Positions 6,415 to 64,000 of a stretch of DNA of 64,000 nucleotides are shown here, piece after piece. Within the stretch, counting starts at the first letter, position 1. Every line of letters begins with the position of its first letter. Source of the DNA: Streptomyces flaveolus (GTDB lineage Bacteria; Actinomycetota; Actinomycetes; Streptomycetales; Streptomycetaceae); NCBI RefSeq assembly GCF_000716535.1, contig NZ_JNWV01000003.1, positions 62,001 through 126,000 of the forward strand, written 5' to 3'. The notes under the pieces are model-generated. The model did no database searches, was not told where the DNA came from, and saw nothing but the letters and a program-made list of their open reading frames with translations. The position numbers and the translations under genes are program-made.

Positions 6415-7461
6415 CTACGGCCGGATCTCATAGACCACGGTGAAGGGAGTCTGCGCGGCCCGGCGGAACCGGGTGAAGCCGGCCTCGGTGGCCACCTCGC
6501 GGACCGCCGCCTCGCCTGACTGTGCGCCCAGAGCGTAACCGCCCTGTTGGGACAGGGCGTTGGGCACGCACAGAAACGTGGAGCCGCTGTAGTACAGCCG
6601 GCCCACCGGATGGAAGTTCTCCTCGATCCGGTCGGACGCGAGCGGCTCCACGAGAAGCCACGTTCCGTCCGCGGCGAGCGCCTGGCGTACCCGTCGTGCG
6701 GCACCCAGCGGGTCGCCCATGTCGTGCAGGCAGTCGAACATGGCCACCAGGTCGTAGTCCGCTCCCCCGAAGGTCTGCGCGGTGGCCACCTGGAAGCTGA
6801 CCCGCCCGGCGACGCCGGCCTCGGCGGCCCTCTCGCGCGCCAGCGCGATCGACTCGCCGTGGTAGTCGGAGCCCACGACCTCCGTCCGCGGATACGCCTC
6901 GGCCAGCAAGATCGACGACGAGCCGAGACCGCATCCCACGTCGGCGACCCGGGCCCCGGCGCGCAACTTGGCGTCGACCCCGTCCAGCGCCGGGATCCAG
7001 TTCGGGACCAGCTCGGCCTCGTAATTGGGGCGGAAGAAGGCATCGACCCCGACGAACACCTCGTCATCGTGCTCATGCCAGGCAACGCCCTCGCCGGTGC
7101 GGAACGCCTCGGCGATGCGGGGCTCGGCGCGCAGCATTCCGAGGGCGAAGCGGAAGGCAGCGGCGACGTTCGGACCGTTCGGGTCAGCCAGGCAGAACGC
7201 CTGCTCCTCGGACAGCGAGAACCGGCCGGTCGCCGCGTCGTACTCGGCGTATCCGCCGGCGGCCTGGCCGCGCAGCCACTCGGTGAGGTAGCGCGGATGG
7301 CAGTGCGTGCGTTCGGCGAACTCCTCGGGTGTCGCCGGGCCCTCGGCGAGCGCCTGGTAAAGACCGAGCCGGTGCCCCAGCGCGATGGTCCCGGCGGCCT
7401 CGGTCGACGCGAGGTCGGTGACGAAGTGGTCCAGGAACTTGTCGATCCCCTCCTGATCCAT
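6415..7461 (-). CDS. SAM-dependent methyltransferase with N-terminal winged helix
   Basis: Class I methyltransferase of 348 residues. The N-terminal 100 residues form the winged-helix dimerisation region typical of the O-methyltransferase/Rv2258c group (IALGHRLGLYQALAEGPATPEEFAERTHCHPRYLTEWL), followed by SAM motif I ARVADVGCGLGSSSILLA, motif II VVGSDYH and the LLVEPLA strand. ATG 7461 follows a perfect AAGGAGGT ribosome site with six-base spacing. It probably acts on a small molecule, but no substrate clue is nearby. The family includes members annotated as regulators; the intact SAM site argues for an enzyme. Confidence 0.88.
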   Translation of the reverse strand: MDQEGIDKFLDHFVTDLASTEAAGTIALGHRLGLYQALAEGPATPEEFAERTHCHPRYLTEWLRGQAAGGYAEYDAATGRFSLSEEQAFCLADPNGPNVAAAFRFALGMLRAEPRIAEAFRTGEGVAWHEHDDEVFVGVDAFFRPNYEAELVPNWIPALDGVDAKLRAGARVADVGCGLGSSSILLAEAYPRTEVVGSDYHGESIALARERAAEAGVAGRVSFQVATAQTFGGADYDLVAMFDCLHDMGDPLGAARRVRQALAADGTWLLVEPLASDRIEENFHPVGRLYYSGSTFLCVPNALSQQGGYALGAQSGEAAVREVATEAGFTRFRRAAQTPFTVVYEIRP

Positions 7462-57706: not shown

Positions 57707-59275
57707 CTACGGCGTCACGACGCTGCCGCCGAAGGTCACCACCAGGTGGCCGTCGGAGGCGAAGGACCAGCCGAGGGCGCCCGCGTACGAGGAGCAACGG
57801 GAGCCGTTGCCGCCGGTCCAGAACTGGTTGGAGCCGTCGGCGTTCCCGACGGTCTTGTCGTTGGACCCGCTGACGGCGAAGCGGCAGGAGGTGTTCGTCC
57901 GGAACACCGAAGTCCCCGCGTCGAAGGAGAAGTTGCGCTCGGCGTTGTCGACGCCGACGTTGTCGGAGATCGTCATCGTGCCGGGGTTGCTGTTGTAGGT
58001 GAACCCGTGGTGGCCGTTCCTGTAGGCGATGCTGTGCCGGACGACGTGGTTCACCGCGATGTCGTCGCCGCCGAGCTTGTAGCCGTTGCGGTCGCCGTTG
58101 GAGTTGACGGTGCCGTCGCTCAGCGTGCCGTTGCCGTAGGACAGGGAGTACTCGATGGTCACCGGGCCGATGGCACCGGTGTCGGTCTTGGCGTACAGGT
58201 CCCAGCCGTCGTCGATGTTGTGGTGTGAGACGTCGTAGCGGAAGACGTTCCCGGTGCCGGTCGTGAGCTTCGCGGCGAAGCCGTCGGCGTCCTCGCCGTC
58301 GGAGTCGGCGTTGTCGTGCGACTCGGAGCTGACGATCAGGTTGCTCGAAGGCCACTGGGAGCTGGGGGTGGTGGAGGCGATCCGGCCGAGCTGAAGCCCG
58401 GTGTCCCGGTTGTAGGCGGTCACCACCCGCTCCACGATGTTGTTGCTGCCGCCGACGTAGATCCCGTTGTCCCCGGCGTGCTCGACCGTGAGGCCGTACA
58501 GCCGCCAGTAGTCGGCGAAGAGCTGGATACCCCGGTTGGACGAACTCTCGCTCTGAGCCGAGAAGTTCAGCACGGGCTTCTCGCCCGGGTAGGCGGACAA
58601 CGTGGTGCGGGCACTGGCGGTGCCGTTGCTGCCCGCCGGGATGGTGATCGTGGAGGAGTAGCCGTACGTCCCGCCGCGCAGGTAGATCGTGCCGCCGGGG
58701 GTGATCCGGCTGATGGCCGAGGTGAGCGTGGTCGGGGCCGACTCCGTGCCGGCCGCGCCGTCGGTACCGGCCGGTGACACGTAGAGCACGGCGCCGGTGG
58801 CCGCCGTGGCCACGTCGACGTCGAGACAGTCGAGGTTGGGCAGGCCGTCGGCGGTGGTCGGAGTGAGGCGGATCGTGTTGCTGCCCGCCTTGACCGGCAC
58901 GGTGAGCGTCTTGGTCGTCCAGGTGGTCCAGGCACCGGTGGCCTCGAACGACGCGGTCGCGGCCGTCGAGCCGTTGACCGCGACGGTGGCCGGCCGCGCG
59001 GTGGCCGTGCCGTTGGCGAAGCGGACGCCCAGGGTCGCGGTGCCCGCACTGGCGGCGTTCACCGTGAACTGGGCGTAGGCGCCGGAGGCGTTGGTGCCGT
59101 TGCAGAACCCGCTGCCGGAATAGCCGGTCCAGTCGGAGTCGATGGTGCCGGTGCAGACCGCGGTCGAACTCTCGGCCTCGTACCTGGTCGTGGCGGCCTG
59201 GGCCGTGGTGCCGGACAGCGCTACGAGCGCGCCGGCGAGCAGACCGGCGCATGCGAGGGCTGGTCTCAGGAACAT
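57707..59275 (-). CDS. Secreted pectate lyase, family PL9, with CBM35-like domain
   Basis: Exported enzyme of 522 residues. Signal peptide ends TTAQAA; residues 33-160 are a CBM35/CBM6-like beta-sandwich (YEAESSTAVCTGTIDSDWTGY), then a right-handed parallel beta-helix. PL9 marks are GEDADGFAAKL, HHNIDDGWDLYAK (calcium Asp residues) and NGYKLGGDD, whose Lys is the catalytic base of this family. It would cut polygalacturonate or rhamnogalacturonan in plant material. AGGGAG precedes ATG 59275. A LacI-type operator lies about 100 bases upstream. Confidence 0.88.
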   Translation of the reverse strand: MFLRPALACAGLLAGALVALSGTTAQAATTRYEAESSTAVCTGTIDSDWTGYSGSGFCNGTNASGAYAQFTVNAASAGTATLGVRFANGTATARPATVAVNGSTAATASFEATGAWTTWTTKTLTVPVKAGSNTIRLTPTTADGLPNLDCLDVDVATAATGAVLYVSPAGTDGAAGTESAPTTLTSAISRITPGGTIYLRGGTYGYSSTITIPAGSNGTASARTTLSAYPGEKPVLNFSAQSESSSNRGIQLFADYWRLYGLTVEHAGDNGIYVGGSNNIVERVVTAYNRDTGLQLGRIASTTPSSQWPSSNLIVSSESHDNADSDGEDADGFAAKLTTGTGNVFRYDVSHHNIDDGWDLYAKTDTGAIGPVTIEYSLSYGNGTLSDGTVNSNGDRNGYKLGGDDIAVNHVVRHSIAYRNGHHGFTYNSNPGTMTISDNVGVDNAERNFSFDAGTSVFRTNTSCRFAVSGSNDKTVGNADGSNQFWTGGNGSRCSSYAGALGWSFASDGHLVVTFGGSVVTP

Positions 59276-59369
59276 CGGCTTGTCTCCCTGCGGGTTGGCT
59301 CGGCTATCGGATGCGAGTGGTCCAGGGGGGTGAACCCGGCGACCGGTCATGGCATGGTGAGCGGTGACG

Positions 59370-59481: not shown

Positions 59482-60411
59482 TTACTCGCCAGGGGCGAGG
59501 GTGCGGGCCACGACGGCCGCCGCGTCGGCGATCAGCGCCTCGTCCACCGGCGCGTCCGGGGTGGTCCTGCTGGACAGGACCACCAGCACGAGAGGGGTCC
59601 GCCGGGTCGTCCAGGCCACGCCGATGTCGTTGGCGGTCGCGTAGTCGCCGGTACCGGTCTTGTCCGCCACCACCCACTCCCTCGGCAGCCCCTTGCGGAA
59701 CCGTGCCGAACTGGTGGTGTTGCCCTTCAGCCAGCCGACGAACCGCTCACGGTCGGCGCGGGCCAGCGCCCGGCCCAGGGTGACGCGCTCCAGGCTCGCG
59801 GCGATCGCCTCCGGAGTGGTCGTGTCGCGCGGATCCCCGGGGATGGCGGTGTTGAGCTCCGGCTCCCAGCGGTCGAGCCGGCTCACCTCGTCGCCGAGCG
59901 ACCGGTAGAAACGGGTGAGACCGGCCGGGCCGCCCAGTTCCCGGAGCAGCAGGTTGCCGGCCGCGTTGTCGCTGTACTGGATCGCCGCCGCACAGAGGTC
60001 GGCCACGGTCATGCCGGTCGCCAGATTCTCCTCCGTCCGCGGCGAGTTGGGCAGGATGTCGTGCGGCGGGTAGTGCACCACCCGGTCCATCGGCGCGCAG
60101 TCGGCCTGGTCGCGCAGGACCGCCGCCGCGGCGAACGCCTTGAACGTGGAGCACATCGCGAACCGCTCCCCCGCCCGGTGGGACACGGTCCGCCCGGTGC
60201 GGACGTTGCGCGCGTACACGCCGAGCCGGGCGCCGTAGCGCCGCTCCAGCTCGGCCAGTTCGGCGTGTCCGGCGGGCGACTCGGCGTGCGGGGCGGCGGA
60301 GGCGGCGGGTGCGGACAGCGCGGTGGTGGTCATGGCGGCGCCGGTGAACGCGAGGCCGGCCTTGATCAGGCGGCGGCGCGGCAGCCGGACGGGGCGGTCG
60401 GCGTTGGTCAT
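59482..60411 (-). CDS. blaL: Class A beta-lactamase, Tat-exported
   Basis: Serine beta-lactamase of 309 residues. A twin-arginine signal (PRRRLIKAGLAF, then ALSAPAASA) precedes the four active-site elements: CSTFK (Ser70-x-x-Lys73), SDN in YSDNAAG (130), ExxLN in RWEPELN (166) and KTG in VADKTGTGDY (234). All catalytic residues are intact. GGAGG lies upstream of ATG 60411. It is divergent from a LysR gene followed by a second beta-lactamase-fold gene, the order known for blaL-blaA-blaB of Streptomyces cacaoi. Confidence 0.92.
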   Translation of the reverse strand: MTNADRPVRLPRRRLIKAGLAFTGAAMTTTALSAPAASAAPHAESPAGHAELAELERRYGARLGVYARNVRTGRTVSHRAGERFAMCSTFKAFAAAAVLRDQADCAPMDRVVHYPPHDILPNSPRTEENLATGMTVADLCAAAIQYSDNAAGNLLLRELGGPAGLTRFYRSLGDEVSRLDRWEPELNTAIPGDPRDTTTPEAIAASLERVTLGRALARADRERFVGWLKGNTTSSARFRKGLPREWVVADKTGTGDYATANDIGVAWTTRRTPLVLVVLSSRTTPDAPVDEALIADAAAVVARTLAPGE

Positions 60412-60550
60412 GAGTGAGGTCCTCCAGGTCGGTCCGTCATCGGGGTGGTCTTCGGCGTCGGTTCCGGCGCGGGTCTTCGCCGGCGGTCGTCGACGGTGAC
60501 AGCGAAACAGCGGGAGCCCACTCATGTCCAAGAGAGAACTTTGAAGGTCC

Positions 60551-60567
60551 CATACCGTATTGATATG
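60551..60567. promoter_or_regulatory. LysR-type site between blaL and blaA
   Basis: CATACCGTATTGATATG has an interrupted dyad (CATA-N9-TATG) with the T-N11-A form that LysR regulators bind. It lies nine bases before blaA. Confidence 0.6.
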
Positions 60568-60575
60568 AGTGCGGG

Positions 60576-61553
60576 GTGGATCTCCTGGCACACCTAGAGG
60601 CGTATGTGGCGACGGCCGACGAGGCGAGCTTCTCCCGGGCGGCCGATCGGCTCGGGATCGCCCAGCCGCTGCTCAGCCGCCGTATCAAGGTGCTGGAGGA
60701 GCACTTCGGCGGCTCGCTCTTCGACCGGTCCCGGCGGCAGATCGCCACCACCGAGCTGGGGATGCTGCTGCTCCCGTACGCCCGGGACGTGCTGGACCGG
60801 ACCCAGCGGTTGCGGCAGGTCGCCCGCTCGGCCCGGCGGTCCCGCGTGTGCGCCGTCGGAGTGCCCGCGGACTGCGCCCCGGCCGCGCTGGCCCGCGCCA
60901 TCCGCGCCGGCGCCGAGCACGGGATCACCCTGGGCATGCGGGAACTGCCGCCCCGGGAGCGGGCCTCCGGGGTGGCCGACGGTTCGCTCGGGTACGCGCT
61001 GGTGCGGGCCGCTCCGGAACAGGCCGCGTTCCGGGTGCCGTTGGGGCTGGCGTCCGCGCCGGGACCGGAGGGCGGCGCGAGCGGGGCTCCACCGCGTACG
61101 GTCCACCTCGAAGAGCTACGGCCACGCCGCGGTCGCACCGCCGGGGCCGCCGCCCCGCCGCCCCTGCTGCTCCTCGGGGAGGACCAGGTGCCGTACTTCG
61201 AGGATCGGTTGTACCGGGCAGCCGCGCGCGCCGGACTGCCCGAGAGCCGGATCCGGCCGGCCGGGCCGGCGGCCACCGCGCTCGCCGAGACACTGGCCGG
61301 GAGCGCGCTGCTGCTGTGTGCCGAGCCGTTCGCGCGACAGCACGGGGCCCATTGGAGACCCCTCGCCGACCGCGCCCTGCACCGGGGGTACGACGTGAGC
61401 GCCGCCCCGGGCCACGCCGGCACGGGAGCCGCCCCGGGCTGGCTGACCTCGCTGCTCACGTCGGCCGTGGGCGCGGTGCCCGCCCGGCGCGGTGGGCCGG
61501 GGCCGGGGGCCGGGGACGAGGACGCTCGCACACGGCTGGCGGCTCGCGGGTGA
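60576..61553 (+). CDS. blaA: LysR-family activator of the beta-lactamase
   Basis: LysR regulator of 325 residues. N-terminal helix-turn-helix: ASFSRAADRLGIAQPLLSRRIKVLEEHFG (about 17-45), then a weakly conserved effector domain. GTG 60576 is the start; the ribosome site is poor. Divergent from blaL and upstream of blaB. By analogy with the S. cacaoi system it activates blaL when beta-lactams are present. Confidence 0.88.
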   Translation: MDLLAHLEAYVATADEASFSRAADRLGIAQPLLSRRIKVLEEHFGGSLFDRSRRQIATTELGMLLLPYARDVLDRTQRLRQVARSARRSRVCAVGVPADCAPAALARAIRAGAEHGITLGMRELPPRERASGVADGSLGYALVRAAPEQAAFRVPLGLASAPGPEGGASGAPPRTVHLEELRPRRGRTAGAAAPPPLLLLGEDQVPYFEDRLYRAAARAGLPESRIRPAGPAATALAETLAGSALLLCAEPFARQHGAHWRPLADRALHRGYDVSAAPGHAGTGAAPGWLTSLLTSAVGAVPARRGGPGPGAGDEDARTRLAARG

Positions 61554-61900
61554 GCGGGGTCTGGGGCTCGTGGATGGGTGGGACAGAGGGCTTGCGGATG
61601 AGCGGGGTGGAGGGCTCGCGGATGATCACGGCAGGCGGCTCGCGGGGGAACACGGCAGGTGGCTCGCGGGGGAACACGGCAGGTTGCTCGCGGGGGAACA
61701 CGGCAGGCTGTTCGCCGATGCATCCCGGCAGGCGGCTCGCGGATGGACACAGCGGGCAGCTCACCGATGAACCGGCAGGCAGCTCACCGATGAACCCGGG
61801 AGGCAGCTCACCGATCAACACAGCAGGCGGCTCACCGAGAGGCACGACGGGTCGATGAACACGGCAAACCGCTCAACGATCGGCACGGCAGCGGCGCACC
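61545..61900 (+). repeat. 24-bp minisatellite from the end of blaA into blaB
   Basis: About fifteen units of roughly 24 bases: a first group of GGGCTCGCGGATGAGC type, three near-identical GGCTCGCGGGGGAACACGGC units, then GCAGCTCACCGATGAACCCG units. It covers the last codons of blaA, the 300-base gap and the first ten or so codons of blaB. A third frame reads as an 8-residue repeat (NTAGGSRG), but no gene starts there. Confidence 0.9.
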
Positions 61901-62814
61901 GGCCGGTGTACGTCGGCGACGACAGTGCCCTCCTCGACGTCGCCGAGGCCATCGCCGCGGACTGGGCGGCGCTCGGTGTCCGCGGCTCCTTCCTCGCCCG
62001 TAACCTCGACACCGGCGAGCAACTCGGCTTCGACGCCGAGGAGTCGACACCCCTGGCGTCGGTGGTGAAGGTCCCGCTGGCCCTGGTCGTGCTGGACCGG
62101 ATCGCGAACGGGGACCTCGACCCGGCGCACCCGGTCACGGTGGACCCCGGCGCCAGCAGCGTCGGCCCCACCGGGCTCGCCGCCTTCCGGTACCCGGCCA
62201 CCGTGGCCGTCGGCGACCTGCTCACGCTCATGCTGTCGGTGAGCGACAACGCCGCCGCGGACGCGCTGCTCGACCTGGTGCCGGTGGCGGACGTCGACGC
62301 GCGGCTGCGCACCTGGGGCTGCGACGGGATCCGGATGCGGCACCGGATGAACCACCTGTACGAGTGCGCCGCCGGTGCCGCGGGCAACGACTTCTCCCTC
62401 GCGCTGGAGCTGGCCGTCCGGGACGAGCGGGCGGGCCGGCACACCATCGAGACCCTGGACCCGGCTCATGCCAACGCCGGCTCGGCCGCGGCGCTCGTCG
62501 GCCTGCTGGAGCGCGTGTGGTGCGATCGGATCGCCGGTCCCGGGGCGACGGCGGAGCTGCGGCGGCTGATGGGGCTCCAGGTGTTCACGCAGCGGCTGGC
62601 GAGCGAGTTGCGGACGGACACGCTGCGGTGGAGCGGGAAGACGGGCACGTTCCTGCATCTCCGGCATGAGATCGGGGTCGTCGAGGCCGAGTCCGGGGAG
62701 CGGGTGGCGATCGCCGCGCTGACCCGTGCGGGGCGCCGAGCGGGGCTGGCACCGGACATCGACCTCGCAATCGGGGTGGCGGGGCGGGAGGCGTTCGAAG
62801 CGTTGCGGAAGTAG
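61855..62814 (+). CDS. blaB: Beta-lactamase-fold regulatory protein BlaB-like
   Basis: Penicillin-interactive-fold protein of 319 residues with ASVVKVPLAL (SxxK), VSDNAAADALL (SDN) and RWSGKTGTF (KTG), but without the Glu166-type loop. No signal peptide is seen, so it should stay in the cytoplasm or on its membrane face, as reported for BlaB of S. cacaoi, which is required for blaL induction. ATG 61855 lies in the minisatellite, so the first 13 residues (MNTANRSTIGTAA) are repeat-derived; a later start is conceivable. Confidence 0.82.
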   Translation: MNTANRSTIGTAAAHRPVYVGDDSALLDVAEAIAADWAALGVRGSFLARNLDTGEQLGFDAEESTPLASVVKVPLALVVLDRIANGDLDPAHPVTVDPGASSVGPTGLAAFRYPATVAVGDLLTLMLSVSDNAAADALLDLVPVADVDARLRTWGCDGIRMRHRMNHLYECAAGAAGNDFSLALELAVRDERAGRHTIETLDPAHANAGSAAALVGLLERVWCDRIAGPGATAELRRLMGLQVFTQRLASELRTDTLRWSGKTGTFLHLRHEIGVVEAESGERVAIAALTRAGRRAGLAPDIDLAIGVAGREAFEALRK

Positions 62815-62952: not shown

Positions 62953-63504
62953 TCAGGTCAGCAGGCGTTGTTCCTTCGCCACCGCCACTGCGCCCGCCCG
63001 CGTGTCCACGCCGAGCTTGTCGTAGACGCGGCGCAGGTGGGTCTTCACCGTGGCCTCGCTGATGTAGAGGGCGCGGGCGATGGCGTGGTTGGAGAGGCCG
63101 CGCGAGAGGTGGGTGAGGATGTCCAGTTCGCGGGGTGTCAGCGTGGGGCGGGGGTTGCGGAGACGGGACATGACGCGGTCGGCGACCGGGGGCGAGAGGG
63201 CCGGGCGGCCCTGGGCGGCGGCGTGGATCGCGGTGAACAGGTCCTCGGCGCGCTCGGCCTTCAGCAGATAGCCTGTGGCGCCCGCGTCGACGGCACGGGT
63301 GACGTCGGCGTCGGTGTCGTACGTGGTGAGGACCAGGACGTAGAGCGCGGCCAGCAGCACGGACAGGGCGATCACCCAGGGGGTGTGCGGTCCGTCGGCG
63401 TGCCGGGCCAGGTAGCGGGCGACGGACGCGGACAGCAGCACGAAGAACGCCGTGTGCATGACGACGGTGAGGGCACGCGTGTCGTCGCGTTCGGGTACGG
63501 GCAC
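62953..63504 (-). CDS. Sensor-kinase N-terminus fused in frame to a response-regulator C-terminus
   Basis: 183 residues. Residues 1-60 are two membrane helices (ALTVVMHTAFFVLLSASVAR and PWVIALSVLLAALYV), as at the start of NarL-system histidine kinases. Residues 60-105 are the last half of a receiver domain (LVLTTYDTDADVTRAVDAGA, then GYLLKAERAEDL), and 120-183 a LuxR/GerE helix-turn-helix (LTPRELDILTHLSRGLSN...). Kinase domains and the receiver's phospho-Asp are gone. GTG 63504 follows GGAGG. The gene is divergent from an HbpS-like gene, the place of senS-senR in other streptomycetes, so it is probably that pair after an in-frame deletion. Confidence 0.75.
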   Translation of the reverse strand: MPVPERDDTRALTVVMHTAFFVLLSASVARYLARHADGPHTPWVIALSVLLAALYVLVLTTYDTDADVTRAVDAGATGYLLKAERAEDLFTAIHAAAQGRPALSPPVADRVMSRLRNPRPTLTPRELDILTHLSRGLSNHAIARALYISEATVKTHLRRVYDKLGVDTRAGAVAVAKEQRLLT

Positions 63505-63572
63505 CGCGGGCACCTCCCTCTCCGCGCTGAACTGGGCAAACACCCTCCATTGTGCCCACCCCCAGCCCCTCC

Positions 63573-63596
63573 GGGGTCATCCGATCGGATGACCCC
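63573..63596. promoter_or_regulatory. 24-bp perfect palindrome in the divergent fusion/hbpS gap
   Basis: A perfect dyad with half-site GGGGTCATCCGA, midway between the two divergent genes. Candidate operator for the LuxR domain of the fusion or another regulator. Confidence 0.75.
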
Positions 63597-63700
63597 ACAG
63601 GCAACCGGTCCGGCGACGGAACCCGGCCCGTCCGGGGCCGAGGATCGGTTCCGGGAGCGACTCCGCCCCCGCCCCCGCCCCTACCGGAAGGTTCCGCACC

Positions 63701-64000
63701 ATGCCCAGCCGTAAGAAGCCGTCCCTCCGTGCCCGCGTCCTGGTGGGCGGCGCCGCCCTGGCCGTCGCCGGTGCCGGTGTCGTCGGCACGGTCGCCGCCA
63801 ACGCCGCCGATTCCACGGACGCCACGCCCGACGCCGCTCCCGTCGCGGCCCGGAACGGCGAGCTGACCCAGAGCACGCATCTCACCCTGGACGCCGCGAC
63901 GAAGGCGGCGCGCGCCGCGGTCGAGGCCGCCGAGAAGGACGGCCGGCACGTCTCCGTGGCCGTCGTCGACCGGAACGGCAACACGCTGGTCACCCTGCGC
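63701..64000 (+). CDS. HbpS/GlcG-like extracellular heme-binding protein, 3' end outside window
   Basis: First 100 codons of a secreted protein. Signal peptide (RKKPSLRARVLVGGAALAVAG to NAAD), then ELTQSTHLTLDAATKAARAAVEAAEKDGRHVSVAVVDRNG, the start of the GlcG/HbpS (DUF336) fold. In Streptomyces reticuli HbpS senses heme and redox stress with the kinase SenS. ATG 63701 has AGG nearby. The right edge cuts the gene. Confidence 0.85.
   Translation, partial: MPSRKKPSLRARVLVGGAALAVAGAGVVGTVAANAADSTDATPDAAPVAARNGELTQSTHLTLDAATKAARAAVEAAEKDGRHVSVAVVDRNGNTLVTLR

What the first reader, a model, noticed from the sequence alone, without database searches (positions are those of the whole stretch)
62953..63600. 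Two-component system collapsed into a membrane-anchored LuxR protein beside an HbpS-like gene
One continuous frame joins the two N-terminal membrane helices of a sensor kinase to the second half of a response-regulator receiver and its DNA-binding domain; the kinase core and the phospho-acceptor Asp are missing. Seen directly: the motif order and intact frame with a good ribosome site. Known: HbpS acts with SenS-SenR in streptomycetes. Inferred: an in-frame deletion of senS-senR made a phosphorylation-independent, membrane-tethered regulator, which could still bind the 24-bp palindrome next door.
Basis: partly seen in the sequence, partly recalled or inferred. Interest (0 to 1): 0.75.

Follow-up and report, generated by a model that had tools for sequence, protein, structure and literature searches.

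The report
Deletion-born SenS–SenR fusion gene
In one soil bacterium a small natural deletion has welded the membrane anchor of a stress-sensing enzyme onto the DNA-binding half of its partner switch protein, and several related strains have lost the same sensor in other ways, so this may be either a decaying leftover or a newborn regulator.

Summary
Window 62953-63543 (minus strand; likely start GTG 63504, 183 aa) encodes the first two membrane helices of SenS joined in frame to strand 4 onward of the SenR receiver plus the complete GerE/LuxR DNA-binding domain. Kinase core and phospho-acceptor Asp are absent, and no other SenS or SenR orthologue was found in the genome. The two nearest relatives have open, full-length senS and senR. 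Against both, the change is one 1286-bp deletion at a 7-bp repeat, ACGTCCT. Four of 17 other cpeB-linked loci carry different senS/senR lesions, so the system is lost repeatedly; only this lesion left an open chimera. The 24-bp palindrome next door has a core conserved across the genus upstream of senS, also at loci without hbpS beside it and near SenR-like paralogues: probably the SenR-family operator. Best reading: a recent deletion ended HbpS-SenS-SenR signalling, and the chimera is more likely a young remnant than a selected regulator, though start site, membrane anchor, DNA-binding domain and operator remain. A precedent exists: gonococcal Rsp, a PilS/PilR-type chimera. Assembly error is unlikely but not excluded without reads.

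The parts
62953..63504 (-). senS::senR chimeric gene (183 aa from GTG 63504; open from GTG 63543, 196 aa)
63400..63483 (-). membrane helix 1, from SenS
   Evidence: hydropathy; AlphaFold helix 8-35 (low to moderate confidence); coordinates
63322..63384 (-). membrane helix 2, from SenS, running through the junction into former receiver strand 4
   Evidence: hydropathy; AlphaFold helix 41-61; coordinates
63335..63341 (-). deletion junction inside 7-bp direct repeat ACGTCCT
63187..63339 (-). second half of the SenR receiver (strand 4 to helix 5); keeps the conserved Thr and Lys, lacks the phospho-acceptor Asp and the acidic pair (residue roles from knowledge of the family)
   Evidence: Response_reg 71-110/111; alignment; mostly low confidence in the model
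62977..63144 (-). complete GerE/LuxR-type DNA-binding domain
   Evidence: pLDDT blocks about 76-95
63573..63596 (.). perfect 24-bp palindrome, core TCAnCCGATCGGnTGA; probable SenR-family operator
63701..64000 (+). hbpS, divergent, open (continues past the window end; genome C3:125701-126261)

Best explanation
A recent 1286-bp deletion, arising by recombination or slippage between two 7-bp repeats (ACGTCCT), joined helix 2 of the histidine kinase SenS to strand 4 of the receiver of SenR. [shown by comparison] The kinase core, the first half of the receiver and the phosphorylation site are gone and were found nowhere else in the genome, so HbpS-to-SenS-to-SenR phosphosignalling should be dead in this strain. 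[shown for the genes, inferred for the signalling] The remaining frame would give a two-helix membrane hairpin, a disordered linker from the half receiver, and an intact cytoplasmic LuxR-type DNA-binding domain. [predicted] The chimera is most likely an early stage in the loss of a locus that is decaying repeatedly in this clade, not a selected regulator. If made, it should be blind to phosphorylation and could still sit, tethered, on the palindrome in its own promoter. [inferred]
For: Junction and 1286-bp length against both nearest relatives. No other orthologue found in G000: the best-scoring other matches are 33% (SenS) and 40% (SenR) identical. A junction repeat of 7 bp or more has a chance of about 0.0014 at a random join of this composition. 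Of 18 distinct loci with a cpeB match, 13 have SenS and SenR nearly full length without a stop in the best match and 5 do not: the window; G325, about 1.2-kb deletion with broken frame; G266, senS and senR gone; S. filipinensis, hbpS and senS gone and a stop in senR; G032, frame-breaking insertion at the SenS H-box. More distant: S. chattanoogensis, SenS-to-SenR deletion out of frame plus an IS605-type tnpB. Among the 120 listed of 7,999 scored protein hits, only P0001 covers the SenS part; it is on 3 contigs.
Against: The frame is fully open. On the tip branch the retained parts show 7 silent and 2 replacing changes, against 72% replacing sites (P about 0.003 under full neutrality); this may only mean that the deletion is younger than most of the branch, and the test ignores mutation bias. 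Operator, start site and DNA-binding domain are intact. The 18 loci were not a random sample: G325 and G266 were fetched because they lacked a SenS orthologue.
Confidence: 0.58

Rival explanations
1. The chimera is a working one-component regulator. Tethered by two SenS helices, it binds the palindrome (and perhaps the furS-cpeB operator) regardless of phosphorylation. It would mimic unphosphorylated SenR, holding furS-cpeB down and no longer activating hbpS, perhaps still touched by HbpS through the short outer loop.
For: Open frame, intact DNA-binding domain, intact start site and perfect operator. The palindrome tracks SenR-type genes genus-wide. A review states that unphosphorylated SenR represses furS-cpeB and SenR~P activates hbpS (passages of PMC3184428). 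Membrane-bound regulators are widespread, and one known case, Rsp, is a kinase/regulator chimera (passages of PMC10269533).
Against: Seen in one species-level genome. The other lesions found at this locus gave broken genes. The half receiver is modelled with low confidence (blocks 44-50), so the normal dimer interface may be missing. [quoted passage not shown] The published SenR site III (CCGGGCCGCGTCCCGT; section of PMC4991794) is not this palindrome.
Confidence: 0.32
2. The junction is an assembly or library artefact and the strain has normal senS and senR.
For: Draft assembly of 232 contigs; no reads could be examined.
Against: The junction lies inside a 266-kb contig. A 7-bp repeat is too short to mislead usual assemblers (general knowledge). 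The missing part has no orthologue-level match elsewhere in the genome, which is 99.98% complete by its listed estimate. P0001 is on 3 contigs, the longest 266,337 bases against 266,284 here, though these may be assemblies of one strain.
Confidence: 0.06
3. The open frame is coincidental and translation is negligible; only the intact hbpS, cpeB and furS matter, now under other control.
For: A one-in-three chance of staying in frame at a random junction; most of hbpS is kept without senS in G266.
Against: The senS start region and the promoter-side palindrome are conserved.
Confidence: 0.04

Closest known systems
Rsp of Neisseria gonorrhoeae (fusion of the nps/npa, PilS/PilR-type, two-component genes)
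   Same: Membrane part of a sensor kinase joined to the DNA-binding end of its partner regulator, where relatives have the two genes (passages of PMC10269533, and PMC6528607).
   Different: Its parent regulator is linked to RpoN, not NarL/LuxR type; different pathway. [quoted passage not shown] The original paper (Carrick 2000) was seen only as a reference.
HbpS-SenS-SenR with furS-cpeB (Streptomyces reticuli; S. coelicolor)
   Same: Neighbourhood of hbpS with senS-senR parts, cpeB and furS (sections of PMC4991794; passages of PMC3754957).
   Different: Kinase core and phosphorylation site missing; two genes fused into one.
Transmembrane transcription regulators, including 'hybrid' ones with two-component domains
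   Same: Membrane helices and a DNA-binding domain in one chain (passages of PMC10269533).
   Different: Two helices at the N-terminus and a LuxR-type domain at the C-terminus; only half a receiver. Membrane location untested.
NarL/FixJ response regulators (best solved match of the intact SenR of S. olivaceoviridis: ChrA, 4yn8)
   Same: GerE DNA-binding domain and the second half of the receiver.
   Different: First half of the receiver, with the Asp, replaced by SenS helices.

Membership tests
[quoted passage not shown]
   Same neighbours as in G016, S. olivaceoviridis and G134, plus cpeB and furS
HbpS-SenS-SenR three-component system | SenS kinase core with phospho-accepting His | tested here: not met
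   Only SenS 1-72 matched at the locus; no orthologue-level match elsewhere in G000
HbpS-SenS-SenR three-component system | SenR receiver with phospho-acceptor Asp | tested here: not met
   SenR present from about residue 88 on only
NarL/FixJ response regulator | GerE/LuxR-type DNA-binding domain | tested here: met
   PF00196 62.6 bits against cut-off 23.5
NarL/FixJ response regulator | complete receiver | tested here: not met
   PF00072 22.8 bits against cut-off 30.2, profile positions 71-110 of 111
Transmembrane transcription regulator | membrane helices plus a DNA-binding domain in one open frame | tested here: met
   Hydropathy, model, Pfam (prediction level)
Transmembrane transcription regulator | membrane localisation and control of target genes | not testable with these tools
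   Needs fractionation, binding and expression assays
Rsp-like kinase/regulator chimera | kinase membrane part fused to the DNA-binding end of its own partner regulator, intact pair in near relatives | tested here: met

The most novel reading that the evidence does not exclude
A two-component system caught, within one species-level branch, turning into a membrane-tethered one-component LuxR-type regulator by a single microhomology deletion, with HbpS and the operator still in place, so that the strain's redox circuit is locked in one state or reads HbpS directly.
Probability: 0.28. Interest if true: 0.68.

Novelty: new member of a known kind. Interest (0 to 1): 0.42.

Why it matters
It is a base-resolved, recent example of how a two-component system can collapse into a single membrane-bound DNA-binding protein, a route proposed for transmembrane transcription regulators (passage of PMC10269533). 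Near relatives with intact genes make a natural before/after pair. The survey also gives two testable side results: SenS-SenR is lost repeatedly while hbpS or cpeB stay, and a genus-wide palindrome is the likely operator of SenR-type regulators.

Tried and rejected
Considered and set aside: a chance open frame (identities and gene order exclude it); an ancient divergent gene (nearest relatives intact); a second senS-senR copy elsewhere (none found); selection inferred from tip-branch counts (9 changes, too few, and the deletion may be younger than the branch); an in-frame fusion in G325 or S. chattanoogensis (broken or out of frame). The first protein alignment for folding (A1) misplaced the SenS fragments and was not used; A2, with SenR rows only, was folded, so the membrane part was modelled without homologues. 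SenS positions from 70 on for L041 are an overlap artefact and were ignored. Not counted as lesions: L095 (S. sp. col6; rearranged, but with a run of N), L078 (S. flavofungini; SenS match split, not resolved), L062, L101 and L131 (SenS missing or short on short locus pieces), and the S. collinus fragment P0049 (named partial). The reversed-pattern control contains CTAG, which is often rare in bacteria (recalled), so it is a weak control; a base-composition estimate is 0.02 sites per genome of this size. Listings of searches showed no report of a SenS-SenR fusion or of this palindrome; the 2007 SenR footprinting paper and Carrick 2000 could not be read, so the palindrome may already be described there.

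Full report
What is there. On the minus strand an open frame runs from 63543 to 62953. GTG 63504, preceded by AGGGAGG ending 8 nt upstream, is the better start and gives 183 aa; a database protein P0001 of the same length starts there. Pfam finds a complete GerE domain (62.6 bits, cut-off 23.5) and only the last 40 positions of the receiver profile. Hydropathy gives two membrane stretches, at residues 11-29 and 43-61. SenS of relative G016 has five such stretches, and the first two are those kept here.

Origin. In G016 the order is furS, cpeB, hbpS (divergent), senS, senR. The chimera's N-terminus matches SenS 1-72 at 92% and residues 60-195 match SenR at 90%. In the nearest relatives the SenS side reads CTCTACGTCCTCGGC and the SenR side CCGCACGTCCTGGTC; the window reads CTCTACGTCCTGGTC, so the break lies in a shared ACGTCCT. 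A repeat this long is expected at about 0.14% of random joins of this composition. A tree of cpeB, hbpS and furS places the window beside S. olivaceoviridis (L058) and G134 (L144), at 97.1 and 97.5% identity (support of the grouping 0.92). Both have nearly full-length senS and senR without stops, and against either the missing stretch is 1286 bp. The event is therefore recent and most likely on this tip. No other orthologue was found in the genome: the best-scoring other matches are 33% (SenS) and 40% (SenR) identical; a few lower-scoring ones reach 43% for SenS and 51% for SenR over short parts.

Surroundings. HbpS is open (PF03928), and CpeB and FurS match over their whole length at 92 and 99%.

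Is the locus decaying? I compared the window's locus, 96 fetched loci (16 from unnamed relatives, 80 named ones found with the chimera as query) and 11 more fetched later, 108 in all, some of them the same genome twice. In 97 of 108, SenS (350 residues or more) and SenR (190 or more) match without a stop in the best match; 11 fail. Of the 11, L062, L101 and L131 are short pieces, L078 is unresolved and L095 has a run of N; six are real lesions. They are the window; G325, which lost about 1.2 kb from SenS to SenR and has a further frame break; G266, which lost senS and senR but keeps hbpS from residue 18 on, and cpeB; S. filipinensis, which lost hbpS and senS and has a stop in senR; G032, whose SenS frame is broken by an insertion at the H-box; and S. 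chattanoogensis, with an out-of-frame SenS-to-SenR deletion ending at the same SenR segment and an IS605-type tnpB beside it. A protein from Streptomyces sp. NPDC004561 (P0020) joins what reads as antisense hbpS sequence (22 of 25 residues) to the same SenR half. Of the 18 distinct loci with a cpeB match (19 rows, L061 and L143 being the same sequence), 5 are disrupted, the window included. The sample is not random: G325 and G266 were fetched for lacking a SenS orthologue, and the 80 named loci came from a search that needs the SenR half. None of the other lesions was seen to leave an open chimera. An intact frame has a one-in-three chance and is no proof of selection.

Selection. Changes unique to this tip in the retained parts are 7 silent and 2 replacing (I194V and P217T in SenR numbering). 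Against site proportions this is unlike neutrality (P about 0.003), but the count is small, mutation bias is ignored, and most changes may predate the deletion.

The palindrome. 63573-63596 is a perfect 24-bp palindrome. All 18 aligned rows of the clade carry its 16-bp core, three of them with one change. Of 96 loci, 89 had the senS 5' end and enough flank; in 79 of these TCAnCCGATCGGnTGA lies within about 350 bp upstream of senS with at most one mismatch (45 exact), and in 10 it has two or more mismatches there. Seven were dropped: four without the 5' end or flank, three without a SenS match. Of the 10 without hbpS divergent within 1.5 kb, 6 have it with at most one mismatch. Random 350-bp windows from the same loci, some of which overlap the true site, gave 56 of 1,920. 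In 392 genus genomes the exact pattern occurs in 247 and the reversed pattern in none of the rows shown; the reversed pattern contains CTAG and is a weak control, but base composition predicts only 0.02 sites per genome. The window's genome has one such site; two others within two mismatches break the core. Of 18 regions fetched around sites chosen from the partial listing (two of them senS loci themselves), 14 contain a SenR-like match and 4 do not. Among the 14, L175 has its regulator pair on the other side of the site and L182 only a DNA-binding half; among the 4, L174 has a SenS-like match at its edge, so its regulator may lie outside. This suggests an operator read by SenR-type regulators. 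G266, without senS and senR, has no such site upstream of hbpS. Against a strict link, S. chattanoogensis keeps a two-mismatch form beside hbpS although its senS is destroyed. The palindrome differs from the published S. reticuli site III (section of PMC4991794). Papers report SenR action on hbpS, senS and senR as well as furS-cpeB (passages of PMC3754957; PMC3184428), which fits an autoregulatory site; they differ on whether SenR~P activates furS-cpeB or merely lets go of it.

Structure. AlphaFold (16 rows, mean pLDDT 64) is confident only for the DNA-binding domain (blocks about 76-95), gives two long helices for the membrane part (blocks about 53-66), and leaves residues 61-120, mostly the half receiver, at 44-50. 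The product would be a membrane hairpin, a floppy linker and a DNA-binding head. Without a proper dimer interface its binding could be weak; NarL-type heads alone can bind in other systems (recalled, no call).

Known kinds. Membrane-bound transcription regulators are widespread, and some contain two-component domains (passages of PMC10269533). The same paper describes Rsp of N. [quoted passage not shown] The window's gene is a new case of that kind in the NarL/LuxR class.

Verdict. The function is open; I favour a young remnant of a locus under repeated loss (0.58) over a working tethered regulator (0.32), with assembly artefact at 0.06.

Noticed in passing
window 61536-61838: Tandem array of a 24-bp unit (best row 61613-61833, 9.2 copies, 81% matches) just upstream of the gene at 61855.
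   Followed up: partly
window 59482-62814: Beta-lactamase-family gene (59482-60591, minus), divergent LysR-type regulator (60576-61553) and a second Beta-lactamase2-family gene (61855-62814), an AmpR-like arrangement; G016 has the same regulator and second gene beside senR.
   Followed up: partly
L171-L173, L179, L183-L185, L187, L188: The TCAnCCGATCGGnTGA palindrome also lies about 3 kb upstream of a second family of SenS/SenR-like pairs (49-53% SenR identity), suggesting a shared operator code.
   Followed up: partly
L176, L177, L178: Three palindrome sites with no SenS- or SenR-like match in the fetched 6.5-7 kb; what reads them is unknown.
   Followed up: no
L043 about 6676-6723: SenS of G032 is broken by an insertion just at the phospho-accepting His motif while SenR stays full length.
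   Followed up: partly
L086 4174-5016: IS605-type tnpB beside the S. chattanoogensis senS/senR deletion.
   Followed up: partly
window 57707-59350: Protein with a carbohydrate-binding module and a weak beta-helix match, possibly a polysaccharide lyase.
   Followed up: no
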